From: Nitrospira sp.
GTDB taxonomy: Bacteria; Nitrospirota; Nitrospiria; Nitrospirales; Nitrospiraceae
Length of the DNA: 64,000 nt
Direction of reading: 5' to 3'
Assembly (NCBI GenBank): GCA_022226955.1
Contig: CP092079.1
Location: forward strand, 1,457,053 to 1,521,052
Below, piece by piece: positions 9,068 through 38,258 of this stretch. The notes beneath the pieces are model-generated. The model saw only the letters and a list, made by a program, of their open reading frames with translations. It ran no database searches and was not told the DNA's origin. The position numbers and the translations under genes are program-made. Positions within the stretch are counted from its first letter, which is position 1. Every line of letters begins with the position of its first letter.

Positions 9068-11395
9068 TTACGGCAGTCCGTTCCGCAACTCCGTGCCATG
9101 CATCCGGGCAAACAGATCCCAGTCGAACTGTTTCGGCGATACCGCATGGAGCGGGATCGTCTCGATCACCCCGCGCTCGCGATAGGCCAGCATGCCGCCC
9201 ACAACATCCTCCGGACGTTCCACTAATCGATGGATCGTCTCATAGGCCAGATGTTGCGCGATCGCTTTGTCCTCCGGCGTCGGCGGCGCGCCGCGCAAGG
9301 TATGGCCAAGAATGGTGGCCTTCGTGGCCTGCGACAACGCATACAACCCGGGCCGCGCATCGCGTTGCGGCCATTGCGCCATCACACCGGCCACGTAGTC
9401 GAGCAGGCCATGCACCCCGCCGTCTCGATGGTGGCGATGCGGCGTGCGTTCGGCCACGACAAACAAGTGGCTCTTATTGGGCACTCCCAATGTACGCTTC
9501 AGCGTCCCGAGCACGACCTCGTCGATATAGGCATCGGGGTCCGGATGCTCGTTGACCAGCAGCCCCTCGGCGCGCGCTTGATAGGCGCAGGCCAGCGCGA
9601 GATGCCCCGACCCGGCGCCCATGACTTCAACGAAGAACACCGTGCCCATGGCGGCACTTGTGGCCTTGAGCGATTCAATCGATTGATTCGCCAGGGCAAT
9701 GGCGGAATGGTAACCCAGCGACGTCGTCCCTTCGATATTGTTGTCGATCGTGCCGGGCAAGCCGACGACCTGCACGCCGAACGCCTCGAAAATTGCCCGG
9801 GCGCCGCGCAAGCTGCCGTCGCCGCCCAGCACGATCAGCGCGCCGTCTTGCAGATAGGGTTCGAGGTGCCGCATCACCGCCTGCTGCACCGCTTCTTCCT
9901 TGAACGCTTCAAAGCGGCTGCTGCCGATGGGACTGCTCGCATGGCTGCTCATGCCCCGCGTCGCCTCTTCCGTGACCGCTTCGATCCAATTGTTCGCCAG
10001 GCCGAGGAACCCGTGCCGGGCGAAGTGCACTTCCAGGCCGAACCGGTGGCCGGTCACGCGCAATTCCTTCAACGCGGCCCCGGCGCCCGCAAAATCGCCA
10101 CCGGAGACCACCGCGACAATCCGTTTGATCTGGCGAGGCTTCAACGTCACGCGATCCTTGCGTATCCGCTCGACCGAGGCCCAGGTATCGCGCGCCGCCC
10201 GCTCCCGCTCCGATAATCCGACCGCTGTGGAGTAGCCCGACAAGCGCCCTTGCTCGTACGTAAGCAGCACGACATTATCCTGGCTCTCTTTGTAATCGCT
10301 GAATTCGGTGAAGGCTTCATGGAACGGGCGCGCGTCCAGGTAAATCATGAGCGCCCGCAACGTCGAACTGTGCGTATACAGGCAAGCCACCTGGCCCTGA
10401 TGCGCGTCGCCCATGCGATGCAGGCCATCGATCACATCGACGTAGAGGTCGAAAAACGAATTCCCGCCAGGATAACAATACAGCGGATTTTTGATCAGAC
10501 GTTTCGCGGTGGACACCTCGACACCGAACGCTTTGGCAAGTTCCTGCGCCTCCACCGTTTTTTCGACGCCCGTGATCCACCCGAAATCCGACGACTCTAA
10601 CGCAGGCGCATACGCCGCCTCGGTGGGAGCATGCGAGTCCTTGATGAGCGCGGCCTCGACACGCTCAAAGAGCTGCCTGGTATTGGGACTTCGAGTGATG
10701 AAGTGGCGAAACCTGGCGGGATCGAGATAGTTCGACAAGCGGAGAAAATCCAGCTGCCGGCCGACCACGCCAACCATCAGGGCCAGCGCCGCCCCCACCG
10801 TGTCGGCGCGCGGCACGCCCCGCTCCGCATCAAGTTGATTCGCCAAGCGGCAGCCAACCCGGTACGTCTTGCTTTCCACCCGCGAAATACCGTGGCGCAT
10901 CGTAAAGAACAGCGTGCGTTCGGCCAGCTCGCGCGGCAAGAGCCAGAATCGCTCGTCACCCAGATCCAGCACAATGCGGCCTTCCGCGAGCTGCGGGGTC
11001 AGCTGCGCGCGCGGCACGATGGCGACCGGGCGGCGATGAGCCGGCTTCAAGACCGATCCGATCGGCGCGCGCAACAAGGGCTGCAACGCGCCTTCGGCCA
11101 GCAGCCGGTTCCATGCGGCAAAAAATACCAGCGGATCGCCGGCGCAGGCCTCATCGATCACGGCTTGCCTGGCGGCCCGGTAGGCCTCGGCTCCTGAAAA
11201 TCCGGTTTGCGCATGCTGAACCAATGCCACAATCCGCTCCATGGCCTGGCGCGCGCGCGCGGCGCGATCGTTCGACGGAGCCGGAGCGGGCGGCGCCGAC
11301 ACGCCATCGATCGCCGGCTGGCGCGCGAACTGCTCTCCATAGGCCAGCAGGCCTTCAATCGTCACGAAATCGAGTGCGTTTATGGTACTCTGCAT
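9068..11395 (-). CDS. 6-phosphofructokinase fused to an FBPase-2-like histidine phosphatase domain
   Basis: A 775-residue protein. Residues 425-775 are a PfkA-type kinase: SGGDFAGAGAA (431-441), GGDGS (524-528) and PGTIDNN (547-553), then GHTLRGAPP. Gly in GGDGS and PGT is typical of ATP- rather than pyrophosphate-dependent enzymes. The second Asp of the usual TIDND is Asn here. Residues about 155-400 look like a histidine phosphatase: RHG at 167-169, S-x3-R at 236-240, YPGGNSFFDL, and the second His in THSS (342). This resembles the fructose-2,6-bisphosphatase half of eukaryotic PFK-2/FBPase-2. Residues 1-150 match nothing I recognise. The start has a good AAGGAG site. It is divergent from pyruvate kinase with a 118-base gap. 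The kinase call is secure; phosphatase activity is inferred. Confidence 0.88.
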   Translation of the reverse strand: MQSTINALDFVTIEGLLAYGEQFARQPAIDGVSAPPAPAPSNDRAARARQAMERIVALVQHAQTGFSGAEAYRAARQAVIDEACAGDPLVFFAAWNRLLAEGALQPLLRAPIGSVLKPAHRRPVAIVPRAQLTPQLAEGRIVLDLGDERFWLLPRELAERTLFFTMRHGISRVESKTYRVGCRLANQLDAERGVPRADTVGAALALMVGVVGRQLDFLRLSNYLDPARFRHFITRSPNTRQLFERVEAALIKDSHAPTEAAYAPALESSDFGWITGVEKTVEAQELAKAFGVEVSTAKRLIKNPLYCYPGGNSFFDLYVDVIDGLHRMGDAHQGQVACLYTHSSTLRALMIYLDARPFHEAFTEFSDYKESQDNVVLLTYEQGRLSGYSTAVGLSERERAARDTWASVERIRKDRVTLKPRQIKRIVAVVSGGDFAGAGAALKELRVTGHRFGLEVHFARHGFLGLANNWIEAVTEEATRGMSSHASSPIGSSRFEAFKEEAVQQAVMRHLEPYLQDGALIVLGGDGSLRGARAIFEAFGVQVVGLPGTIDNNIEGTTSLGYHSAIALANQSIESLKATSAAMGTVFFVEVMGAGSGHLALACAYQARAEGLLVNEHPDPDAYIDEVVLGTLKRTLGVPNKSHLFVVAERTPHRHHRDGGVHGLLDYVAGVMAQWPQRDARPGLYALSQATKATILGHTLRGAPPTPEDKAIAQHLAYETIHRLVERPEDVVGGMLAYRERGVIETIPLHAVSPKQFDWDLFARMHGTELRNGLP

Positions 11396-11513
11396 GCTTC
11401 TCCTTCATCTCCGGGCTGTCGATCCGGCCATCGCCGTGGCGCCCGCCACCGGGCATGAACGAGCGCATCATTGGATGTCCGCTATTTCTATGTCAAGGGC
11501 TGAGGAACACCGC

Positions 11514-12971
11514 ATGCGAAAAGCCAAGATTATCTGCACCATCGGACCGGCCAGTAACACCCCGCCGGTGCTAGACCGGCTCATTGAAGCCGGCATGAAT
11601 GCCGCCAGGCTGAACTTCTCTCATGGGAATTACGATACGCACGCGGCCGCCATTGCAGCGGTCCGCCAGGCGGCGGAACGCCGTCAGGCCGCCGTCGCGA
11701 TCATTCAAGACCTGCAAGGGCCTCGCATCCGCCTGGGCGAGTTACCCGCTGAGGGAATCGACCTGAGCGTCGGTCAATCGGTGCGGCTACAGACAATGCT
11801 GGCGCGATCCGGTGGGCAACTCGGCGCCCAGTCTGTCGCGTCACGGCAGGCCACCGTCCCCGAGATTCCCGTCACCTATCCCTATCTTGCCCGCGACGTC
11901 AAACCCGGCGCGCGGATTCTGATCAACGACGGGTTAATCGAATTAGTAGCCGATCGCATCGTCGGCGGAACCGTCGAATGCACCGTCACGACCGGCGGAA
12001 AAATCACCTCGAACAAAGGCATCAATTTACCGGGCACAGCGGTCAGCGCTCCAACGCTCACCGACAAAGACCGGGAAGACATCCGGTTCGGCATTGCGCA
12101 AGGCGTGGATTATCTCGCCCTCTCCTTCGTCAGAGGGCCGGAAGACATCGTCGCGGCGCGGGCGCTGGTCACCGCTTGCGGCGGAGCGCTGCCGATCATC
12201 GCCAAGATCGAGCGGGCCGAAGCCATCGCCGCCTTGGACGCCATCTTGGATCAGGCGGATGGGGTCATGATTGCGCGGGGCGATCTGGGCGTCGAGCTGA
12301 GCCCTGAAGCCGTGCCGCTGTTGCAGAAACGGATTATCCTGGAAGCCAACCGCCGCGGCCGCCTCGTCATCACCGCCACACAAATGCTGGAGTCGATGAC
12401 ACAGGCCTTGCGTCCGACCAGAGCGGAGGCCTCGGATGTCGCCAATGCCGTATTCGACGGCACCGACGCGGTGATGCTGTCGGCTGAAACGTCCATCGGC
12501 GCGCACCCGGTTGAAACCGTCCAGGTCATGGATCGCATCGTGTGCGTGGCGGAAGAAGGCCCCGAGCCTGGCGTAAACCTCACGCGCCACACCGATTGGG
12601 GAGGCATGGATTTCCCCGAAGCGGTCTGCACCGCCGCAGCGTCGGCAGCTAAAGCGATTGCCGCCAGCCTCATCGTCGTCTTCAGTGAACGGGGGACGAC
12701 CGCGCGTCTGATCTCGAAACAGCGTCCTGCCGCGCCGATCGTCGCCTTCACCCTGTTCGAGCCGGTCAGAAAACAGATGGCCCTCTATTGGGGCGTGCGC
12801 CCCTATACCATGCCGCAGATCGAACATACCGATGCCCGTATGGACGAAGCCGAGCGACGGCTGAAAGCGGAGGAACTGGCTAAGGCGGGAGACCGGATTG
12901 TCATTCTCTCCGGGACCCGCAGCGGGCACCCAGGGGGAACGAACCTGATCAAACTGCATGTCGTGGGATAA
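11514..12971 (+). CDS. pyk: Pyruvate kinase
   Basis: A 485-residue enzyme converting phosphoenolpyruvate and ADP to pyruvate and ATP. It shows the N-terminal AKIICTIGPAS, the NFSHG active-site loop, KIERAEA with the catalytic Lys, and MIARGDLGVEL followed by the TATQMLESM signature. The C-terminal allosteric-type domain is present and ends in a GxPGGTN motif. Start 11514 was chosen because MRKAKIICTIGP is the family N-terminus and a GAGGA site lies upstream; the frame is open further upstream. Divergent from the phosphofructokinase fusion, so the two lower-glycolysis control points share one regulatory gap. Confidence 0.96.
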   Translation: MRKAKIICTIGPASNTPPVLDRLIEAGMNAARLNFSHGNYDTHAAAIAAVRQAAERRQAAVAIIQDLQGPRIRLGELPAEGIDLSVGQSVRLQTMLARSGGQLGAQSVASRQATVPEIPVTYPYLARDVKPGARILINDGLIELVADRIVGGTVECTVTTGGKITSNKGINLPGTAVSAPTLTDKDREDIRFGIAQGVDYLALSFVRGPEDIVAARALVTACGGALPIIAKIERAEAIAALDAILDQADGVMIARGDLGVELSPEAVPLLQKRIILEANRRGRLVITATQMLESMTQALRPTRAEASDVANAVFDGTDAVMLSAETSIGAHPVETVQVMDRIVCVAEEGPEPGVNLTRHTDWGGMDFPEAVCTAAASAAKAIAASLIVVFSERGTTARLISKQRPAAPIVAFTLFEPVRKQMALYWGVRPYTMPQIEHTDARMDEAERRLKAEELAKAGDRIVILSGTRSGHPGGTNLIKLHVVG

Positions 12972-13068
12972 CTGATGTCCGCCATGGCATCGATGGGACA
13001 ACCATCCAGCGGATCAAGGAGTGGCAGCCGGCATTCCGCCTGGATCGAGAGACAGTCGCCGAACGGCC

Positions 13069-13887
13069 TCAGGGTTGAGCCCGGCCGGCGTAGCGGCCCA
13101 GCGACGACACAAACGGGAAGCGCAGCATCATGAAGAGATTCAGGCACACCGGCGGGCCGAGATGGTCGAGCCCGATTTTCACCCCCAGTTGCCCCAACCT
13201 TGGCTCCGCGCAATAGGTTCCGAACAGCCGATCCCACCAGGGCACGTTAAAGCCATAGTTGCTGTTCGTCTCGCGCACCGCCGTCGAGTGATGGATGCGA
13301 TGCATATCCGGCGTGACCACGAAATACCGCAGCACCCGATCCAGCCACAACGGCATCCGCACATTGCTGTGATTGAACAAGGATGTCGCGTTCAGGATAA
13401 CTTCAAAGACAACGACCGCCAGCGGCGCCACGCCCAGCAACAAGACCGCGAGGGCTTTCACGCCCGTTGAAATCACAATCTCGACCGGATGGAAGCGGAC
13501 GCCGCTGGTGACATCCAAGTCCAAATCCGAATGATGCATCATGTGAAAGCGCCAGAGCAGCGGCACAAAGTGAAACACTTGATGCTGCCAATAGATAATC
13601 AAATCCAGCAGCACGACCGCGATACCCGTTTCGATCCAGACCGGCCACTCCACAAGATTTAGGAGCCCCCACCCCCGTTCTTGCGCCAGCGCCGCGACAG
13701 CCACGACTCCGCCCATGAAGAATACACGGGCAATCGCTGTATTCAGAGCCACGATGGTCAGATTCCCGCCCCACCGGCAAAGCTTCGATGCCGTGAGCGC
13801 CCTTCGCGGGGCAATGAGTTCCCATGTGGCCATGATCGTCAAAACCGCGAGATAGGAGCCGATACGAATAACATCCTGCGTGGCCAT
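13069..13887 (-). CDS. Sterol desaturase / fatty acid hydroxylase family protein
   Basis: A 272-residue membrane protein with four or five hydrophobic segments. It carries the three histidine clusters of the di-iron hydroxylase family: HQVFH, HMMHH (WRFHMMHHSDLDLD) and HRIHHS (TPDMHRIHHS). A further His lies in FRHP-like GVRFHP. Family members hydroxylate or desaturate lipids with oxygen; the substrate here is unknown (a hopanoid, fatty alcohol or carotenoid is possible). A strong AGGAGG site precedes the ATG. It stands alone, 97 bases from pyruvate kinase. Confidence 0.9.
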   Translation of the reverse strand: MATQDVIRIGSYLAVLTIMATWELIAPRRALTASKLCRWGGNLTIVALNTAIARVFFMGGVVAVAALAQERGWGLLNLVEWPVWIETGIAVVLLDLIIYWQHQVFHFVPLLWRFHMMHHSDLDLDVTSGVRFHPVEIVISTGVKALAVLLLGVAPLAVVVFEVILNATSLFNHSNVRMPLWLDRVLRYFVVTPDMHRIHHSTAVRETNSNYGFNVPWWDRLFGTYCAEPRLGQLGVKIGLDHLGPPVCLNLFMMLRFPFVSSLGRYAGRAQP

Positions 13888-13924: not shown

Positions 13925-14061
13925 CAATGGATTCAACCGAAACAGGAACGGATCATTTTCCGTCCCGACGCGCACATACTGCTGGCATTGGTGGACGCAA
14001 TTATCCAACAGATCGCGCACTGGCAGAGATGAATGAGCCGCTCCTTGGAAACTCGGCGGTC
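13925..14061 (+). repeat. Diverged direct repeat, copy 1
   Basis: This intergenic stretch aligns with 15892-16036 in the same orientation. The best-conserved parts are the start (CAATGGATTCAA), TGGCATyGGTGrACG, and a 27-base block around CTGGCAGAGA with 23 matches by eye. Copy 1 keeps a short open frame to a TGA at about 14030, so the repeat could be a degraded gene fragment. The two copies bracket the toxin-antitoxin region. Confidence 0.6.
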
Positions 14062-14066
14062 ATGCG

Positions 14067-14429
14067 TTACGGAGAAAACGGCCCGACCGACAACCCGGCA
14101 ATCGCGACAATGCCGCCCACGCAGCAGAGCACGAATCCAGCGGCGCCTGCCACGAACCAGGGACGAACCGGCGCGAACTCGGCCGGCGTGAGCCGGTCGT
14201 GCAGCTCAACCGGCCGCCGCCACCACCATGACGGCAGCGTCATGCGCCTGGCCAACGCGCGATACAAGACGACGTGATACCACAACCCCGCCGGAATCCC
14301 GAGCAGCAAGCCTCCGGCCAGGACCCACAGACCGAACTCGATCATGATCAGTGGCGTAATCGCCTTGGCAATGAAGCCCAGCACCGCGACCCCGGCCAAA
14401 CTGATCAGTACCAGTAAGAACTCATGCAT
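14067..14429 (-). CDS. Small membrane protein of unknown function
   Basis: A 120-residue protein with hydrophobic segments at about 3-22, 28-50 and 92-115. Between them is a basic, Trp-rich cytoplasmic stretch (SWWWRRPVELHDRL). No family recognised. No clear ribosome-binding site precedes the ATG. Codon use looks normal for the region. It lies next to repeat copy 1 and has no obvious operon partner. Confidence 0.65.
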   Translation of the reverse strand: MHEFLLVLISLAGVAVLGFIAKAITPLIMIEFGLWVLAGGLLLGIPAGLWYHVVLYRALARRMTLPSWWWRRPVELHDRLTPAEFAPVRPWFVAGAAGFVLCCVGGIVAIAGLSVGPFSP

Positions 14430-14542
14430 GGGGCGGATTGTACCGGATTGACACAGGAGAGGAGAAGCACCGCGTTGTGAGGGAAATTCTAGCGAATCAC
14501 CGACAACCGCCTAACGTTCCACTGAGAACTATTCATCCACAC

Positions 14543-14917
14543 TTACTCCGGCTGCCAAAAATGCTTGATATCGAACGAGAGTTGACGATGGTGCTTGATG
14601 GCTAAAAATACGATCCGGTCCTGTCGGATAAGGTAGAGCACGAGATGGTCGTCCAGAATGGATTCGCGCAGACTGTCGCCCTTCTTCAGTAGACGACGAA
14701 GCTTCTGAGTGAGCGCTTCAGCCTTTGAAGACTTGATCGTCCGTGCAAGAAATACACGGCCTGACTCTGGAAAGCGGCAGTGGGTGGGAATCGTCTCATC
14801 GAACAGACGGTCTAACAACCGATTGAATGCCAGACGGCCTTTCAGGCCAAGAAAGGCTTCAAGATCGGCCAGATTGGCAGAAAAGTTTTCGGTAAAGACT
14901 GGCCGTTTACCGGCCAT
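14543..14917 (-). CDS. RelE/ParE-superfamily toxin-like protein
   Basis: A 124-residue protein with the RelE/ParE fold pattern: N-terminal helices (FTENFSANLADLEAF), then strands ending in DHLVLYLIRQDRIVFLAIKHHRQLSFD. Known members are mRNA interferases or gyrase poisons. Catalytic residues cannot be assigned confidently. It overlaps the 3' end of the upstream antitoxin gene by 11 bases, the standard antitoxin-first operon order. It is slightly longer than typical RelE (about 95). Confidence 0.75.
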   Translation of the reverse strand: MAGKRPVFTENFSANLADLEAFLGLKGRLAFNRLLDRLFDETIPTHCRFPESGRVFLARTIKSSKAEALTQKLRRLLKKGDSLRESILDDHLVLYLIRQDRIVFLAIKHHRQLSFDIKHFWQPE

Positions 14918-15188
14918 GTCGGGACTTGAGTTGAGCCAACGTGAGCGTTCGCTTCTTCCCCAGGTCCGTCATCCCCTTAACCGCTTCTTGGAGGAGGCTG
15001 ACATGAATCTGCTCACGCTCCAATCGATGGTAGTAATCCAAGCGGTCGGCGTCGATCAATGCCGCGCAACTTCCGCCATTCTTGGTAATGATCTTTTCCG
15101 TTCCATTTGTGCGAACCTCTTCGCACAGCTCAGTGAGCTTCGCCCTTGCCTGGCTCAGTGACACGATGTCTTTCGAGGTAATCGCCAT
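14907..15188 (-). CDS. Phd/YefM-family antitoxin
   Basis: A 93-residue protein whose N-terminal half is the Phd/YefM DNA-binding fold (VSLSQARAKLTELCEEV, then KIITKNGGSCAALIDADR). The C-terminal tail would wrap the toxin. The start at 15188 is preferred over 15200 because a GGAG site lies 6 bases upstream. It is translationally coupled to the RelE-like gene. Such antitoxins normally autorepress their own promoter, which should lie in 15200-15250. Confidence 0.82.
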   Translation of the reverse strand: MAITSKDIVSLSQARAKLTELCEEVRTNGTEKIITKNGGSCAALIDADRLDYYHRLEREQIHVSLLQEAVKGMTDLGKKRTLTLAQLKSRHGR

Positions 15189-15251
15189 GCTTCGCTCCAT
15201 ACTGAGGACAGTCTAAATTACGTACAGAATTCCGTCAACATCGCGCTCGCA

Positions 15252-15294
15252 CGAAAAACCAGGGCCACAATGGTTTTTGGAACCATTGTGGCCC
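15252..15294 (-). terminator. Rho-independent terminator
   Basis: A perfect 14-bp stem (15262-15275 with 15281-15294) and a 5-base loop. Read on the minus strand it is followed by a run of five T (complement of 15254-15258). It sits about 43 bases past the stop of the minus-strand secreted-protein gene and insulates it from the toxin-antitoxin operon. Confidence 0.75.
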
Positions 15295-15336
15295 CCGAGA
15301 TCAACGGTCATTCCCATTCGCTAGAAACCGCGAACC

Positions 15337-15798
15337 CTATTTCCCGACACACTGCCAGGTCTTGCCGACCAGCGTCAGCGCCGGACGCAGGATGCCGCTA
15401 ATCTCCATAAAAGACCCCGTGGAAGTCAGATCGTCCGTGAGAAACGTGGAAACGCGCATCCAGGAGACGGCCTGCTTGATGGAACAGCCCGACGCCTTCG
15501 TGGTGCATAAGGCATCGCAAATAATGATGCTCGTCTCCGCGCAGTTGTAGGTCTTCACGATATAGTTCTTCCAGACATGCGGCGCCCGATTCGGATTCCA
15601 GGTCTCGAAGACAGGCTTCCACGTCACATTGTACGAAAAGGTCGTCGATGAATCGCAGATCGGCGTATCGGCTGCCAATTGCGTCACATGCCAGGGCTTA
15701 ACCGGCGGGGATACTTTGATCGCGGCCTGCGCCGACGACACAACACTGGCGAGAATGCTCGCCATCAACACAGCACCAATTACAATTGCGTTTCTCAT
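15337..15798 (-). CDS. Secreted protein of unknown function
   Basis: A 153-residue protein with a clear Sec signal peptide (hydrophobic core about 4-18, cleavage likely after SSAQA). The mature part holds six cysteines (e.g. in CDSSTTF, YNCAETS, ICDALC, SGCS), suggesting disulfides in the periplasm or outside. No family recognised. A GGAGGG site precedes the ATG. A strong terminator follows, so it is probably a single-gene unit. Confidence 0.7.
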   Translation of the reverse strand: MRNAIVIGAVLMASILASVVSSAQAAIKVSPPVKPWHVTQLAADTPICDSSTTFSYNVTWKPVFETWNPNRAPHVWKNYIVKTYNCAETSIIICDALCTTKASGCSIKQAVSWMRVSTFLTDDLTSTGSFMEISGILRPALTLVGKTWQCVGK

Positions 15799-16152
15799 GC
15801 GGCCCTCCAGGTTAAGCGCCGACAGGCTACTCCGATTGATTCCAATGCGCCAGCCTCGTCATGCCGACAAAGACCTAATCGCCCAGGCATTCAATGGATT
15901 CAATGCAAAGCAGGATCGGACAGTCTTCCGCAACTACCCCTGAGTACTAATGGCATCGGTGAACGTCAAGCGATTGCCGATGGGATCGAGCGCTGGCAGA
16001 GAGGAATGAATAGCCTCTCAAAAACTCAGAATGTCCCCAGAGCATCACGCAATCGAGATGAAGGTTAACCTCTACCCAACAAAAGCAAGTGACGAAGGCA
16101 CCACTGATTCCTGAAGTGTCTTTTTGACATAGGGTAAGGCTTCGCCAAGCCT
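15799..16152. other. Gene-free stretch containing repeat copy 2
   Basis: No supportable gene here. It holds repeat copy 2 (15892-16036) and then passes into AT-richer sequence toward 16153. It probably marks the edge of an acquired segment. A small 7-bp hairpin at 16136-16153 overlaps the stop of the next minus-strand gene but has no T-run. Confidence 0.5.
15892..16036 (+). repeat. Diverged direct repeat, copy 2
   Basis: Partner of 13925-14061 in the same orientation. Its tail (AAACTCAGAATGTCC near 16020-16034) is echoed by AAATTCAGAATGTTCTC near 17621-17637, at the far side of the AT-richer segment. That could be a short flanking direct repeat, though the match is imperfect. Confidence 0.55.
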
Positions 16153-16638
16153 TTACTTTTCGAGACCGTTCTTTTTCGAAAGAGAGACCCAAATGAGCTC
16201 CGCATCGAAAGTGCCCGGAGTGTCGTCCTTCTCCTTAAGCATCTCAATTGTAATTGTCGAAACTGGATAGTTCGACGTCCCCATAAACCCACTTGAATAA
16301 CCGGTAGCCGAAAAACTCCCATAACTAGAGACCGTTCCAGTTGTATGCGTTGAACCAGGTATGTAGAAGGCCTGAGATTGCGAAGACTGGCTTTCGTTCA
16401 ATATGCGGAAGTACTTGTAGCCTTTCCCTTTGGCAATTTCTGACGCCCTCATAATCGCAAAGTCATCGCACTCGTTTTGAGGAATGCTATACCCGGCATA
16501 AGAAACACGATACACCCTCTCGTTCAACTGAGTATCTGAATACCCAAGTTTCCACATATTATCCGAATTGTGATAACTCCGGCCTATATCACAACCTCCA
16601 ACCATCAACACAACCACCAACAAAATTAGCCTGTTCAT
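16153..16638 (-). CDS. Probable CC0125/CC1285-type lipoprotein
   Basis: A 161-residue protein with a lipoprotein signal (hydrophobic N-terminus, lipobox VGGC with Cys16). The mature part resembles the CC0125/CC1285 lipoprotein family (YSDTQLNERVYRVSYAGY, then CDDFAIMRASEIA and GYKYFRI). No function is known for that family. The gene is AT-richer than its surroundings and shares strand and spacing (33 bases) with the MuF-like gene, so they may have arrived together. Confidence 0.65.
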   Translation of the reverse strand: MNRLILLVVVLMVGGCDIGRSYHNSDNMWKLGYSDTQLNERVYRVSYAGYSIPQNECDDFAIMRASEIAKGKGYKYFRILNESQSSQSQAFYIPGSTHTTGTVSSYGSFSATGYSSGFMGTSNYPVSTITIEMLKEKDDTPGTFDAELIWVSLSKKNGLEK

Positions 16639-16671: not shown

Positions 16672-17514
16672 CTACTTTCTCTGATCAGCACCCTCGCTTA
16701 ACCACAAAGCAAAAGACCGCCCTCTGTTCTCTCGATATATTGCCCCAGTACGCTTGAGAGAACTTATCGCATATCCCACCTTATCCTTCTCTTCGAGCCC
16801 GAACCGCTCATACAGCTTTGACTGTACGAGACCGGGCTCTCCTCCTAGAATGGCAATCACTTTCAGTTTATAGATCACAAGTTCCTCCTCAGTTGGACTC
16901 GAAGAAACTGGATCATATTCCAACACCGACCTATCATGCAGGTTTCGGCCTTTGGGTGGCCCAATATACTGACCAAGGGGTCCGTAGAGTGGCCTGTAAA
17001 GCACTGTGTCGCAACTACAATTAAATGTTTCCGCTATATCAGCGGCAGGATCACGGGGATAGTTGATCAATTTGCCAGTGACCGGATTACAAAACGCCTC
17101 GTTAAAGCTTACGATTTGTCCATGCATCGAAACGTGTCCATCATTTGGTTCTTTCGTGTTACCACTTTGAACCCATACCTTTTTCAACTCAGGCGAGTAT
17201 TTACACGCTTCTCCGTGGCGAATATTCTTAGCCAAGGCATAGAGATAGCCCATTTCTTGATGGATGATAAGCGCTGCATGACGGTTGTTGGGGATAGTAC
17301 AGTGCGAAGGTTGTGCATCGGGTAGCGTTTCTCGGTCAAGAACTTTTCTAACGGCTTCAATGCTGTTTCCCACAGGATGCCTTTCACGCATCCCTTTCCT
17401 CAGAATTTGTCCAATCTGCTCCCTTCCCACTTCAGAAATAAACAGCACCCAGTCGGCAATCTGACGCTGATCTAGCGCCGCTTCCAGTGATTGGGGGAAA
17501 AAAGGTTCTGTCAT
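16672..17514 (-). CDS. Phage MuF-like head-morphogenesis domain protein with C-terminal winged-helix-like region
   Basis: A 280-residue protein. The central part (about 110-180) matches the C-terminal pattern of Mu gpF/minor head proteins: KKVWVQSGNT, DGHVSMHGQIVSF, FCNPVTG, YPRDPAADIAETFNCSC. The last 70 residues look like a winged helix (YKLKVIAILGGEPGL, then YAISSLKRTGAIYREN). No other phage gene is nearby, so this is either a prophage relic or a MuF domain reused elsewhere (MuF domains also occur in polymorphic toxins). The gene is AT-richer than its neighbours. Its ribosome-binding region lies inside a hairpin. Confidence 0.6.
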   Translation of the reverse strand: MTEPFFPQSLEAALDQRQIADWVLFISEVGREQIGQILRKGMRERHPVGNSIEAVRKVLDRETLPDAQPSHCTIPNNRHAALIIHQEMGYLYALAKNIRHGEACKYSPELKKVWVQSGNTKEPNDGHVSMHGQIVSFNEAFCNPVTGKLINYPRDPAADIAETFNCSCDTVLYRPLYGPLGQYIGPPKGRNLHDRSVLEYDPVSSSPTEEELVIYKLKVIAILGGEPGLVQSKLYERFGLEEKDKVGYAISSLKRTGAIYRENRGRSFALWLSEGADQRK

Positions 17515-17553: not shown

Positions 17554-17660
17554 CTAAAAACATCAGAACAAAAAATTCTCTAATTTCTTTGTCGCAAGAA
17601 GCGAGCGATCATCCACTGAAATTCAGAATGTTCTCATTGCTGTTCCGTCGATTGCGATTC

Positions 17661-19322
17661 CTAGCCCCCGATAAAATACCGCCGCTTGATGTCGCGCTCT
17701 GAATTCTTTTTGAAGTGCCCCGGCACCCATTTCCGCCAGTCCTCGAACAAGTCTTGCGGCTTCCATGTGCTGAAGGCTGCCGAGCCAGCCTGTTCGATGT
17801 GCCGTTTCACCGATTCACGAAACCGATGGTGGGCGAACAGGCGCATGAACTCGCCGAAATAGATATCCGCGACACGCGAGTTGCCGCGAATGAGCACCAT
17901 GTTTTCATCGTTGGTCGTGACGCTGGCCTCGCTGAAATTTGCCGAGCCGGTGAGGGTCACCGGCTTCTTGCCGAGCGGGTCGATGAGCATGAACTTCGTA
18001 TGCACCCAGTTCACATTGACGCCGATCCCTCGCCCCTCCTGGTGCCAGCCATCGACCCAGTCCACAAAGATGCTGCTGCCAACCGCCATGCCGATGTTCT
18101 CGTGGCGGCGAATGCGCTCGATCTCGACAATCGCCGCGGCGCGCGAGGCCGCGTTGCCGCCATTGACGTACTTGTCCAGCAAGGCGAATCGCAAGACCGC
18201 ATCGTTCCGATCGAACACGGGGCGGAAGTCGGCGGCAATACCGAAGGGGAATGTCATGAAGAGCGGCTTGGGCTCGCTGGCCAAACCGATCCACCAGTCG
18301 AAGACCCCGCGACCGCGGCGCGGAGAGAAGATCGGCGTCAAGGCATCGGCATCGTCAGGCGGAGGCAAGACATTCTCCGATCCGGTCCAGTCCTTCAGAG
18401 CGTTCGATTCAGGATCGTCGTTGAGTTCCGTCCAGTATTTGAGGAAACGTGTGGCCAGGGCCTTATCGTGAATCGCATGCCCGACATTGAGCTGGCCATA
18501 CAGCGCATTCCGGCTGAGGTTCGTCGAACCGGTCCACACAGACACCGGTTTGCCGTTCTTGCTCAGCACGATGAATTTATTGTGCATCAGCTTGGCGTTC
18601 ACGCGCGGGACGCACAGCGCCGCGATGTGCGCGCGCGCGATTTCTTTGTTGTTAGCCACGCCGGTCTCGTCGTCTTTGCCGTGGTAGATGATCCGCACGT
18701 CGGCGCCGGAGACGTGGGCCGCCTTGAATGCCGCCAGCACGTCTGGCCACTTCAGCTCATAGATCGCGGCGTGAAGACTGTAACCCTGGCCTTTTGCCTT
18801 CCCGATGAACCCGAGCAGTGCGGGCAGCAGATCTCGCGTAAGCCACGCATAAGCGGGCGCGCCGGCCTCATCGAGCGTCATTCCGGGGAAGCGCTTGGCA
18901 AACGCCTGCGAGGCGATTGCGCCGCGGTTAAAGTGCACCTCATGCTTGGCGCCGGCAAGCGGTTCGGTTCCAATAGTGACGCTGGTCGCGGGCTTTTCGA
19001 TCAACGCGCCGGGACGGCCATACATCGGGACCACGCGGTACTTGTATTTGTACCCAGGCTTTGCCGAATAGTCCGCCCACTGGAAGGCTTGAAATGGATG
19101 CTCCCGGCTGCTGGCATCTTCGATGCCGGTGGAGGGACGAATACGAGCAAAGGTCTTATTGCCGCGCAACCAAACCGTCTCGCCCTCAATGAAGTCCGTG
19201 CGTTGAATCGCGAACCCCATCAGCCCGGCCGCGTCTGATTCCTTGATATCGAAGGCGAGAAAAACGACATGCGTCCCGCTGACGGCCCTGACCTTGACGT
19301 AACCCGATGCCGTTCGACGCAT
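17661..19322 (-). CDS. Phospholipase D-like (double HKD) protein
   Basis: A 553-residue protein. Residues 1-125 look like an FN3-type beta domain. Two phospholipase D catalytic motifs follow: HNKFIVLSKNGK...TGSTNLS (about 240-270) and HTKFMLIDPLGKK...TGSANFSEA (about 437-465). Both keep the His and Lys needed for the phospho-enzyme. No signal peptide is visible. Family members act on phospholipids, cardiolipin or nucleic acids; the substrate is not predictable. A GAGGAGG site fixes the ATG at 19322. GC content is back to the chromosomal level. Confidence 0.85.
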   Translation of the reverse strand: MRRTASGYVKVRAVSGTHVVFLAFDIKESDAAGLMGFAIQRTDFIEGETVWLRGNKTFARIRPSTGIEDASSREHPFQAFQWADYSAKPGYKYKYRVVPMYGRPGALIEKPATSVTIGTEPLAGAKHEVHFNRGAIASQAFAKRFPGMTLDEAGAPAYAWLTRDLLPALLGFIGKAKGQGYSLHAAIYELKWPDVLAAFKAAHVSGADVRIIYHGKDDETGVANNKEIARAHIAALCVPRVNAKLMHNKFIVLSKNGKPVSVWTGSTNLSRNALYGQLNVGHAIHDKALATRFLKYWTELNDDPESNALKDWTGSENVLPPPDDADALTPIFSPRRGRGVFDWWIGLASEPKPLFMTFPFGIAADFRPVFDRNDAVLRFALLDKYVNGGNAASRAAAIVEIERIRRHENIGMAVGSSIFVDWVDGWHQEGRGIGVNVNWVHTKFMLIDPLGKKPVTLTGSANFSEASVTTNDENMVLIRGNSRVADIYFGEFMRLFAHHRFRESVKRHIEQAGSAAFSTWKPQDLFEDWRKWVPGHFKKNSERDIKRRYFIGG

Positions 19323-28400: not shown

Positions 28401-29786
28401 CCGTCTGGTGGCAATCCCCTCGGCCAGCATGCGCAGCACCCCGTCGAACTCGCCGCGCGAAAGATCCCGGTAGGAATAGGCCCGGCGGAACAAGGCATAG
28501 AGCTCGTCTTCCGTCCAAGCCTGACTGGCCGCTGCCGCCACAATCTGCTGAGAAAGAATGTCGAGCGGCGCGGGTGGAATCTCGATCCGATCCAGCGTCC
28601 CCCGGCGAATCGCGCGCACCAACGCCGCGCACTCCAGCAGCTCGTCCCTGGTCATGGCAAACAAGCGGCCTTTGGGAATCGCCTTGATCCAATGGCCGGC
28701 CCGGCCGATCCGCTGCAATCCAGTGGCAATCGCTCTCGGCGAGCCGATCTGGCACACAAGATCGACCGTGCCGACATCGATGCCCAGCTCCAGCGACGCC
28801 GTGGCGATGACGACGCGCGTCTGGCCAGTCTTCAATCGCTCTTCCGCCGACAGGCGAATCTGCCGCGACAGGCTGCCGTGATGCGCCGCCACCGCGCCAG
28901 GGCCCAGATCGTGGAGCCGTTCTTCCAGATAGTGCGACACCCGCTCGGCCAGGCGACGCGTATTGACGAACACCAGTGTCGAGCGATGCTGCCGAACGAG
29001 TTCGGCCACGCGATCGTAGACGTCGGACCAAATGGCATTTGTCGCCACGGCGCTCAGCTCATCCTTCGGCACCTCCACCGCGAGGTCTAATTCACGGCGA
29101 TGACCGACATCGATAATGGTTGGACGCGGGCGGGCCCCAACCAGAAACTCCGCCACCAATTCTATGGGCCGTTGCGTCGCCGACAGGCCGATGCGTTGCG
29201 GTTTGATCGCGGTCAACGCGTCCAATCGCTCCAGCGACAGCGCCGCATGAGCGCCACGCTTGTTCGGCGCCAGCGCGTGAATTTCGTCGACGATGACCGT
29301 CTGTACCGTTTGCAGCAGACGGCGGCTCTTCTCCGCCGTGAGCAGAATGAACAGCGACTCCGGCGTGGTCACGAGGATATGCGGCGGCCGCTTGAGCATC
29401 TGCTGCCGGTCCGCCATCGGCGTATCGCCAGTGCGGACGAGCACACGCAGCTCTGGCATCAGCAAGCCGACTTGCAGGGCCAACTGCCCGATCTCGGCCA
29501 GCGGCCGTTGGAGATTCTTCTGGATATCGTTGCTCAACGCCTTGAGCGGCGAGACATACAAGACATGCGTGTGATCGTCGAGCTCCCGCGCGAGGGCTTG
29601 CATGAAGAGCGCATCAATGCAGGAGAGAAAGGCCGCGAGGGTCTTGCCCGACCCGGTCGGCGCGGCGATTAACGCATCCGCGCCGGATTGAATGGCGGGC
29701 CAGGCCTGCCGCTGCACCTCCGTCGGCTGCCCAATCTGCGACTGAAACCACTCGGCAATGATGGGATGGAAGGATGTGAGCGGCAT
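25488..29786 (-). CDS. lhr: Lhr-family ATP-dependent DNA/RNA helicase
   Basis: A protein of about 1432 residues. Superfamily 2 motifs run in order: APTGSGKT (42-49), DEIHAL, SATQRP, FVNTRRLAERV, HHGSLSRQ, SLELGIDVGTVDL, RIGRAGH. The Lhr-core winged-helix and beta domains follow, then a long C-terminal extension with winged helices, as in E. coli Lhr (1538 residues). Known role: 3'-5' helicase linked to DNA repair. The start was taken at 29786 (MPLTSFHP); an ATG at 29795 is also possible and neither has a strong ribosome site. A degenerate copy of the start of this gene lies at 36905-37045. Confidence 0.93.
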   Translation of the reverse strand: MPLTSFHPIIAEWFQSQIGQPTEVQRQAWPAIQSGADALIAAPTGSGKTLAAFLSCIDALFMQALARELDDHTHVLYVSPLKALSNDIQKNLQRPLAEIGQLALQVGLLMPELRVLVRTGDTPMADRQQMLKRPPHILVTTPESLFILLTAEKSRRLLQTVQTVIVDEIHALAPNKRGAHAALSLERLDALTAIKPQRIGLSATQRPIELVAEFLVGARPRPTIIDVGHRRELDLAVEVPKDELSAVATNAIWSDVYDRVAELVRQHRSTLVFVNTRRLAERVSHYLEERLHDLGPGAVAAHHGSLSRQIRLSAEERLKTGQTRVVIATASLELGIDVGTVDLVCQIGSPRAIATGLQRIGRAGHWIKAIPKGRLFAMTRDELLECAALVRAIRRGTLDRIEIPPAPLDILSQQIVAAAASQAWTEDELYALFRRAYSYRDLSRGEFDGVLRMLAEGIATRRGRGLAYLFHDRINRRIKGRRGARLAAITSGGAIPDTANYAVVAEPDGTVVGSVDEDFAVESLAGDIMLLGNTSWRIKGIEAGKVRVEDAQGAPPNIPFWRGEAPSRTAELSAEVAALRQEIAQQACSSDPAIAPHPSAIIWLHRECALDQRGAQQAIEYVLAGKAMLGTMPTQDTIVAERFFDESGGMQLVLHAPFGGRINRAWGLALRKRFCVTFDFELQAAATDNGLVISLGEKHSFPLESVFGYLHSKSVREVLIQAALLAPMFATRWRWNASRALALLRFSKGKKVPPQIQRMKSEDLLAAVFPDAIACQENLTGERAARQIPDHPLVNETIRDCLTEAMDLDGLTAILQRIESGQIRCVAIDSPAPSPFSHEILNANPYAFLDDAPLEERRARAVEMRRTLPPELLGQVGALDQAAIEEVEREAWPVVRDADELHDALLTLVWVPVEEGAAWAAFLPRLIEEGRIAELPARCEGRAVQGWAAAENRERVERLLASGDEEALVAAVQGWMESIGPATVPQLAARLHLAADGVAAALLKVESQGQVLRGSFRPASALSAQAPARSGAAVPEWCHRRLLARIHRLTVGRLRKDIEPATVTEFMRFLLLWQHVASGSRLHGEVGLAQIIAQLAGFEAAASAWEPQLLRARLAKYEPELLDRLCLSGAVSWGRLSPHPRLASGDEPDRARRIVPTSVAPLSLFPREDGEWLMRACVDSAAQAGPDPYGQLSAVAQEVRRVLHERGASFFADLVRLTNHLSAEVEAGLWELASAGLVTADGFDNLRALMDPRRRRAEGRERARRPRHTAGRWSLLRSATQSSASNQERAPAEAVARQLLRRYGVVFRDLLARESLVQSWRDLLVVYRKLELQGEVRGGRFVTGFVGEQFALPEAVEALRTARKSGSSVGGAEIKLSACDPLNLAGIILPGPRVPAVATNFLVFRDGAVVRTVTAKNRTAEPIQMRGLVQSI

Positions 29787-36904: not shown

Positions 36905-37045
36905 CTCCCATTCCAGTCAGCCAACGATCAACGCAGACAAGCCGGATTGAATGGCGGGCCAGGGCAGCCACGGCACCTCCGCCGACTGCCTGACCTACGA
37001 CTGAAACCGCTCATGGAATGTGATGAAAGAAGAATAGCAGCGTAG
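36905..37045 (-). pseudogene. Decayed fragment of the 5' end of lhr
   Basis: On the minus strand the frame reads ERFQS*, then EVPW..PWPAIQSG and AL, aligned to EWFQSQIGQPTEVQRQAWP and AIQSGADAL (Lhr residues about 12-40). It carries at least one stop and several substitutions. Nucleotide identity is obvious by eye between 36944-37015 and 29688-29760. The copy has the same orientation as the intact gene 7 kb away. The 276-base gap between the kinase and the propeller gene holds nothing else I can support. Confidence 0.68.
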
Positions 37046-37130: not shown

Positions 37131-38258
37131 CTACGGACGCCCAGGCGTTGCTATTCCAGAAGGAGCCGTACCCGCGCTGAAGGGCGATCCAGTTACCGCA
37201 GCAAGAACGCCCGTCGATCCGTTGATGGTAAACGCGGACACATTGTTGGTCCCTCCATTTGCCACATAGAGAAAAGACCCATCGGGTGAGACCGTCACAC
37301 CAGCCGGACTGGTCCCCGCGGAGAAGGGCGATCCGGCAACCGCCGTCAATGCTCCGGTCGTATTGTTGATCGTAAAGGCCGAAACATTGCTGGAACCTTG
37401 ATTGGTTACATACACAAAAGACCCGTTCGGCGACACGGCCACGGCAATCGGACTCGTTCCTACAGAAAACGGCGAGCCCGCCACGGCGGACAAGGCACCC
37501 GTCGATCCATTAATCGAATAGATGGAGATGTTGTTAGAGCCTAGATTCGTGACAAGCGCAAACAATCCATTGGGGCTTACCGCAACCGCACTGGAATTGG
37601 TTCCCGCTCCAAATGGCGATCCGGCGACAGTCGAGAGAGCTCCCGTGGATGAATTGATTGTATACCCAGACACATCCCCTCCCCCATTTGCGATATAGGC
37701 GAAGGAACCATTCGGAGAGACTGCTACTGCCGCCGGGTTTGTTCCTGCTCCGAATGGCGAACCGGCGACTCCGGACAACACCCCGGTCGAACTGTTGATC
37801 GAATAGACCGACACGTTGTTGGTGCCTTGGTTTGCGACAAATACAAATGCGTTATTCGGAGAGACGGTGACAGCACTGGGGGTGGTTCCTGCCGCAAACG
37901 GTGACCCAGCGACAGCTGTGAGTACTCCGGTTGCGCTATTCGCTGTAAATCCTGAAAGGGTATTACCTCCGGAATTTGCCACATACACAAACGCCCCATT
38001 GGAGGAAACCGCAGCTGCGGTAGGACTTGTCCCAACTGAAAATGGAGACCCCGCCACCGCACTTAATGCGCCTGTTGTACTGTTAAAGGTATAGGCCGAG
38101 ACATCGTTGGAGCTTTGATTAGCCACATAGGCAATAGCAGAAGCATTCGACCCACCCAGCGTAAAATTTCCCCCGGCACCATCGCCACCGTCACTTGGAC
38201 AGCCGGTGAGAAGAAACAGTCCTGACAACGCACACACAATCGCTATCGGCTTCTTCAT
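37131..38258 (-). CDS. Beta-propeller (lactonase/YncE-like) lipoprotein
   Basis: A 375-residue protein. The lipobox is LLTGC (Cys at about 20). The rest consists of about eight near-identical repeats of roughly 43 residues. Each contains AVAVSPNGSFVYVANQGSNN, a YTINSSTG-type strand and AGSPFSVGT. This is the YVTN/lactonase-type propeller. No lactonase active-site residues can be assigned, so a binding or surface role is likely. Start 38258 is preferred over 38273 because of the GGAG site and signal peptide. A good promoter lies upstream. Confidence 0.83.
   Translation of the reverse strand: MKKPIAIVCALSGLFLLTGCPSDGGDGAGGNFTLGGSNASAIAYVANQSSNDVSAYTFNSTTGALSAVAGSPFSVGTSPTAAAVSSNGAFVYVANSGGNTLSGFTANSATGVLTAVAGSPFAAGTTPSAVTVSPNNAFVFVANQGTNNVSVYSINSSTGVLSGVAGSPFGAGTNPAAVAVSPNGSFAYIANGGGDVSGYTINSSTGALSTVAGSPFGAGTNSSAVAVSPNGLFALVTNLGSNNISIYSINGSTGALSAVAGSPFSVGTSPIAVAVSPNGSFVYVTNQGSSNVSAFTINNTTGALTAVAGSPFSAGTSPAGVTVSPDGSFLYVANGGTNNVSAFTINGSTGVLAAVTGSPFSAGTAPSGIATPGRP

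What the first reader, a model, noticed from the sequence alone, without database searches (positions are those of the whole stretch)
13925..16036. Diverged direct repeats bracket the toxin-antitoxin region
13925-14061 and 15892-16036 align over about 140 bases in the same orientation, with the strongest block around CTGGCAGAGA. Between them lie a small membrane protein, the Phd/RelE pair and a secreted protein. This looks like an accessory segment acquired or duplicated between repeats.
Basis: seen in the sequence. Interest (0 to 1): 0.52.

Follow-up and report, generated by a model that had tools for sequence, protein, structure and literature searches.

The report
Scar of an old segment duplication
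Two faded repeats in a Nitrospira chromosome are leftovers of the tail end of one lost enzyme gene, most likely copied when a small block of genes was duplicated and then lost different genes from each copy, which changed the local gene order.

Summary
The repeat pair is real: 13925-14054 and 15892-16027 align at 66% over 136 columns; 0 of 2000 shuffles score as high. The copies are not ends of a mobile element. In a close relative, G076 (Nitrospira sp. SJ32), the sequence occurs once: the 3' end of an intact glyoxalase-type (VOC) gene plus its spacer to the fatty-acid-hydroxylase gene D. Both window copies are relics of that tail. Five relatives read D then the small membrane-protein gene M; the window reads M then D. 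Three scars fit a tandem duplication with reciprocal loss: the first repeat starts where homology to M's downstream flank ends; the D-M spacer survives behind D, up to the start codon of a missing M; the second repeat lacks its D. The Phd/ParE-type pair is a separate insertion of about 0.7 kb, found in 9 of 79 genomes of the genus and only here at this site. How the secreted-protein gene reached its place is unresolved. Verdict: a well-preserved case of a known rearrangement route; modest interest.

The parts
13925..14054 (-). c1: relic of the VOC gene 3' end (frameshifted by a 5-base gap) plus the VOC-D spacer; contiguous with D as in G076
15892..16027 (-). c2: orphan relic of the same VOC 3' end plus spacer; 15940-15999 still codes for 20 VOC residues at 80% identity
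13069..13887 (-). D: fatty-acid-hydroxylase (PF04116) gene, survivor of the second copy
12983..13068 (-). D-M spacer kept behind D up to the position of M's start codon; M itself is gone
14067..14429 (-). M: small membrane-protein gene, survivor of the first copy
14430..14475 (-). M's 5' flank; matches the end of the D-M spacer of G045 and the M flank of G014
14055..14066 (-). M's 3' flank; its homology to relatives ends where c1 begins (proposed duplication junction)
14543..15242 (-). inserted toxin-antitoxin unit (Phd/YefM 14907-15200, ParE-family toxin 14543-14917); limits shared with 8 other genomes
15337..15798 (-). Sec: secreted-protein gene, in 3 of 79 genomes of the genus, each time at a different position relative to D and M; block with its 5' flank 15335-15853 matches G076 at 92%
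15854..15891 (-). 38-base filler between c2 and the Sec flank, no detectable origin

Best explanation
The repeats are the last traces of a tandem duplication followed by loss of different genes from each copy. Inferred steps: (1) the ancestor read, in the direction of these genes, PLD - VOC - D - M, then pyruvate kinase on the other strand. (2) In the window's lineage VOC was cut down to its 3' end. (3) The stretch from the VOC relic to just past M was duplicated in tandem. (4) The first copy lost D and the second lost M, so D-M became M-D. (5) A Phd/ParE-type toxin-antitoxin unit was inserted between Sec and M. Sec now sits where the first D would have been; how it got there is not resolved. 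Shown: what the repeats are, their single counterpart at an intact gene in G076, the changed gene order, the D-M spacer sequence at two places, the M-end/c1 junction, and that the toxin-antitoxin unit is an insertion. Inferred: the order of the steps, and that one duplication made all the scars. No function is proposed for the repeats themselves.
For: The repeat is significant and has only two copies in the own genome. G076 has one copy, the 3' end of an intact VOC gene (PF19581, E 2.7e-45) followed by D. Both window copies align to it: c1 z 8.3, c2 z 29.6, 0 of 1000 shuffles each; c2 still codes for 20 VOC residues at 80% identity, E 2.5e-6. All five other relatives in which D and M are neighbours in the pyruvate-kinase region (G040, G041, G045, G065, G093) read D then M. 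Behind D the window keeps the D-M spacer collinearly up to M's start codon (about 98 columns against G041; z 14.8); its M-proximal half alone is matched by 3, 1 and 1 of 2000 shuffles against G041, G065 and G040. M's own 5' flank also carries that end of the spacer. Homology to M's 3' flank stops where c1/c2 homology begins. c1 and c2 share a cut-down VOC front that G076 lacks, and their VOC-D spacers resemble each other (30/41) more than G076's (25/41 and 28/42).
Against: Against G045 and G093 the M-proximal half behind D is not significant (245 and 255 of 2000 shuffles). In the VOC tail c2 is closer to G076 (51/65) than to c1 (40/60), so the date relative to the G076 split is not firm. G014 also reads M-D, in another neighbourhood and without c, so that order may have arisen more than once. 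No trace of the first D was found between c2 and Sec. A unit that held Sec does not fit both flanks. The front of c1 does not match the PLD flank, so the left end of the unit is not fixed. No relative with both copies complete was found.
Confidence: 0.74

Rival explanations
1. One of the two blocks was imported by recombination from a related Nitrospira and landed beside the native one, so the repeat is a native copy and a foreign copy of the same VOC-D region.
For: In the VOC tail c2 is closer to G076 than to c1; Sec is found in only 3 of 79 genomes.
Against: c1 and c2 share a cut-down VOC front that G076 lacks; Sec, D and M show the same fourfold-site identity to G076 as the neighbouring genes (0.74, 0.72 and 0.69 against 0.77, 0.74 and 0.73 for g775, pyruvate kinase and PLD).
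Confidence: 0.14
2. D, with its upstream region, was moved as a piece to the far side of M, without duplication of the whole segment.
For: D and its upstream region are intact and contiguous.
Against: A simple move leaves one copy of the VOC tail, not two, and does not explain spacer sequence both behind D and before M. No transposition gene lies in the interval.
Confidence: 0.06
3. The repeats bound a mobile cassette that carries the toxin-antitoxin pair.
For: Direct repeats flank the segment; the toxin-antitoxin pair is patchy, in 9 of 79 genomes.
Against: The conserved toxin-antitoxin unit is 14543-15242 in all 8 comparisons, far inside the repeats; the segment also holds the native gene M; the repeats are a gene tail.
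Confidence: 0.03
4. The repeats are a shared regulatory or RNA element in front of D and Sec.
For: Each copy lies upstream of a gene on the same strand; the c1 strand folds somewhat better than shuffles (z -2.6).
Against: c2 does not (z 0.85); no Rfam match at gathering score; no other copies in the genome; c2 still reads as VOC protein.
Confidence: 0.03

Closest known systems
SNAP model: duplication, then loss of different genes from each copy, giving a new gene order (Brandis and Hughes 2020, PMC7055797; abstract and found passages read)
   Same: Duplication followed by loss of different genes from the two copies, leaving a new order (here D-M to M-D).
   Different: The stretch here is a few kilobases, not tens to hundreds of genes; no selection, essential gene or flanking recombination repeat is shown.
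Tandem duplication random loss, as used for mitochondrial gene order (search listing only; mechanism recalled)
   Same: Same logic of duplication and complementary loss.
   Different: Bacterial chromosome, with a later insertion into the interval.
Glyoxalase superfamily protein PF19581
   Same: The repeats derive from the 3' end of such a gene.
   Different: Only the tail remains, twice, and c1 is frameshifted.
Type II toxin-antitoxin pair, Phd/YefM antitoxin with ParE-family toxin
   Same: Family matches and two overlapping genes, antitoxin first.
   Different: The repeats are not its boundary.

Membership tests
Tandem duplication with reciprocal gene loss | Two relics of the same stretch in direct orientation | tested here: met
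Tandem duplication with reciprocal gene loss | Gene order differs from relatives in the way complementary loss predicts (D-M to M-D) | tested here: met
   G014 has M-D elsewhere without c
Tandem duplication with reciprocal gene loss | Flank of a lost gene still present at its former place | tested here: met
   whole spacer behind D z 14.8 against G041; its M-proximal half alone is significant against 3 of 5 relatives
Tandem duplication with reciprocal gene loss | Trace of the lost D in the first copy | tested here: inconclusive
   c2 is D's upstream region without D, but the 38 bases between c2 and the Sec flank match nothing tested
Tandem duplication with reciprocal gene loss | A relative that still holds both complete copies (supporting, not strictly defining) | tested here: inconclusive
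   none seen among 79 genomes of the genus each for the repeat, Sec and M; an intermediate need not survive
SNAP (selected rearrangement) | Duplication kept by selection and fixed by loss of genes needed in single copy | not testable with these tools
   sequence alone does not show selection
Mobile element with terminal direct repeats | Repeats bound a unit that comes and goes as a whole, with a transposition gene | tested here: not met
   no such gene between the repeats; the toxin-antitoxin unit has other limits
Type II toxin-antitoxin, Phd/YefM with ParE-family toxin | Family-level matches of both partners in a two-gene unit | tested here: met
   the same two-gene unit in 8 other genomes
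Type II toxin-antitoxin, Phd/YefM with ParE-family toxin | Toxicity neutralised by the antitoxin | not testable with these tools
   needs expression in a laboratory strain

The most novel reading that the evidence does not exclude
The interval between the PLD and pyruvate-kinase genes is a place where small tandem duplications with complementary loss recur: three relatives hold the same three genes in three orders (Sec-D-M in G040, D-Sec-M in G076, Sec-M-D in the window), a readable natural series of duplication-driven change of gene order in bacteria over short evolutionary distances.
Probability: 0.25. Interest if true: 0.5.

Novelty: new member of a known kind. Interest (0 to 1): 0.34.

Why it matters
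How gene order changes in bacteria is argued mostly from models and from long-range comparisons; the SNAP paper itself says that further analyses are needed to test whether the process acts on genomes (abstract). A small case in which the lost genes' flanks can still be read, next to close relatives with the unchanged order, is a concrete example of the end state. It also corrects a natural misreading: repeats around a toxin-antitoxin pair need not be its vehicle.

Tried and rejected
Mobile cassette bounded by the repeats: rejected, because the conserved toxin-antitoxin unit lies well inside them and the segment holds native M. Regulatory or RNA element: no Rfam match, no consistent fold, no further copies. 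Dispersed repeat family: sequence model R1 finds only these two copies in the own genome; the weaker hits in G003 and G018 (E 0.08 and 0.15) are 3' ends of VOC genes, the rest were not followed. An early reading in which the duplicated unit was c-Sec-D-M was dropped: G076 shows VOC and D as neighbours. A unit c-D-Sec-M was dropped because the spacer behind D in the window is the Sec-free D-M spacer. An RHS/YD-repeat origin, suggested by a 37-base match in G010, was dropped for the VOC gene. Integron attC site beside the toxin-antitoxin pair: only single box-like motifs, no clear site; motif recalled. Pfam on two short c2 peptides: nothing. The repeat between the PLD flank and the front of c2 (17619-17636 and 16022-16039) is suggestive only (9 of 1000 shuffles). 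Paper searches: (Nitrospira, tandem duplication, gene order) found no paper.

Rows dropped from view: one search printed only loci L006-L024; only pairs with z above 4; (for L073), 51 and 61 left out rows of mechanical open reading frames; one search lists 22 matches at E up to 1, of which 2 are the window's.

Full report
Names used. Reading along the minus strand, the window holds PLD (17661-19322), a 280-aa gene (16672-17514), a lipoprotein gene (16153-16638), repeat c2, Sec (15337-15798), the antitoxin and toxin genes (14907-15200, 14543-14917), M (14067-14429), repeat c1 and D (13069-13887); pyruvate kinase follows on the plus strand (11382-12971). D is a fatty-acid hydroxylase (PF04116), M and Sec have no Pfam family.

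Observation. The repeats are real: 66.2% over 136 columns, E about 1e-11, best of 2000 shuffles 33 against 54 observed. Of 3950 random pairs of window stretches 1 scored higher; it was not identified. In a self-comparison of the window only a tandem coding array near 37.1-38.1 kb and a pair at 29.7 and 36.9 kb are stronger. A sequence model of the two copies finds only these two in the window's genome.

What the repeats are. Among 79 genomes of the genus the model has strong matches in G076 (E 2.2e-14) and G101 (2.5e-7); five weaker ones, E 1e-3 to 0.04, were not followed apart from fetching the region for G048. In G076, a close relative (Sec 95%, D 91%, M 95%, pyruvate kinase 90% identical in protein), the match is the 3' end of an intact 127-aa gene of the glyoxalase superfamily (PF19581, E 2.7e-45), followed by the spacer to D. 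In G101 it is the 3' end of the same kind of gene in another place. The window's genome has no VOC gene of this kind at E 0.001, but c2 still encodes LPALDPIGNRLTFTDAISTQ against LSVCDPFGNRLTFTDAISTQ (80%, E 2.5e-6). c1 has lost five bases in this stretch and is out of frame. Both copies align to the G076 stretch beyond all 1000 shuffles. G076 is the genome of Nitrospira sp. isolate SJ32: its Sec locus lies on a contig of 470,359 bases, the same length as record JADLEJ010000004.1 found with the same protein.

Gene order. M was found in 10 of 79 genomes of the genus. In five (G040, G041, G045, G065, G093) D directly precedes M, with pyruvate kinase next or a few genes on. In G076 the order is D-Sec-M. 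In G014 it is M-D, in another neighbourhood, without c. In G048 and G095 no D lies in the stretch held. The window is the tenth: M-c1-D. Sec occurs in 3 of 79: before D in G040, between D and M in G076, before the toxin-antitoxin pair and M in the window.

Scars. Behind D, where relatives have M, the window keeps the D-M spacer collinearly, about 98 columns against G041 up to the start codon of M (z 14.8 for the spacer), and then passes straight into the pyruvate-kinase end. The M-proximal half alone was tested apart: 3, 1 and 1 of 2000 shuffles reach the score against G041, G065 and G040, but 245 and 255 against G045 and G093. The same end of the spacer stands before the surviving M (against G045 and G014). 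M's 3' flank matches relatives for about 20 bases and stops where c1/c2 homology begins. c2, D's former upstream region, is followed by a 38-base filler of unknown origin and then by the flank of Sec. These are the marks that a tandem duplication of VOC relic - D - M, with loss of the first D and the second M, would leave.

Timing. c1 and c2 share a cut-down VOC front that G076 lacks, and their VOC-D spacers are closer to each other (30/41) than to G076 (25/41, 28/42), which puts the duplication after the split from G076. The VOC tail does not show this: c2 to G076 51/65, c1 to c2 40/60, c1 to G076 37/60; c1 has evolved faster there. Fourfold-site identity of Sec, D and M to G076 (0.74, 0.72, 0.69) is like that of neighbouring genes, so no recent import is seen. 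How Sec came to stand after c2 is not explained.

The toxin-antitoxin pair. The toxin matches in 9 of 79 genomes. In all 8 others antitoxin and toxin are together, and DNA similarity covers the same unit of about 0.7 kb and ends on both sides. Two of the 8, G065 and G093, also have M, on other contigs. It is a module that moves on its own and has entered here between Sec and M. The PLD to D interval differs in content in every relative read, so it is a variable spot in general.

Known models. Duplication followed by loss of different genes from the two copies is proposed as a route to new gene order in bacteria (SNAP; PMC7055797, abstract and passages), and segmental duplication is named as one cause of operon-cluster changes (PMC8046335, abstract only). 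The window fits the end state of that route on a small scale. Selection cannot be judged. A search for Nitrospira with tandem duplication and gene order found no paper.

Verdict. Observation confirmed; interpretation partly right. The thing is a duplication scar, a new example of a known kind.

Noticed in passing
37149-38137: Tandem coding repeats: self-alignments at offsets that are multiples of about 144 bases, 61-65% identity.
   Followed up: no
29653-29782 and 36913-37042: Another direct repeat pair, 74% over 131 columns.
   Followed up: no
17619-17636 and 16022-16039: An 18-base direct repeat flanks the lipoprotein and 280-aa genes; the same motif lies behind PLD in relatives. Possibly a second duplication scar.
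   Followed up: partly
15261-15295: Strong terminator-like hairpin on the minus strand directly after Sec, 15 pairs and a T run.
   Followed up: no
L058 7927-10871 (G041): The same interval in G041 holds other genes, one with a weak match to TIR-type defence effectors (E 0.006): a variable spot between PLD and D.
   Followed up: partly
16153-16638: The lipoprotein gene matches the CC0125/CC1285 lipoprotein family, E 4.5e-19.
   Followed up: no
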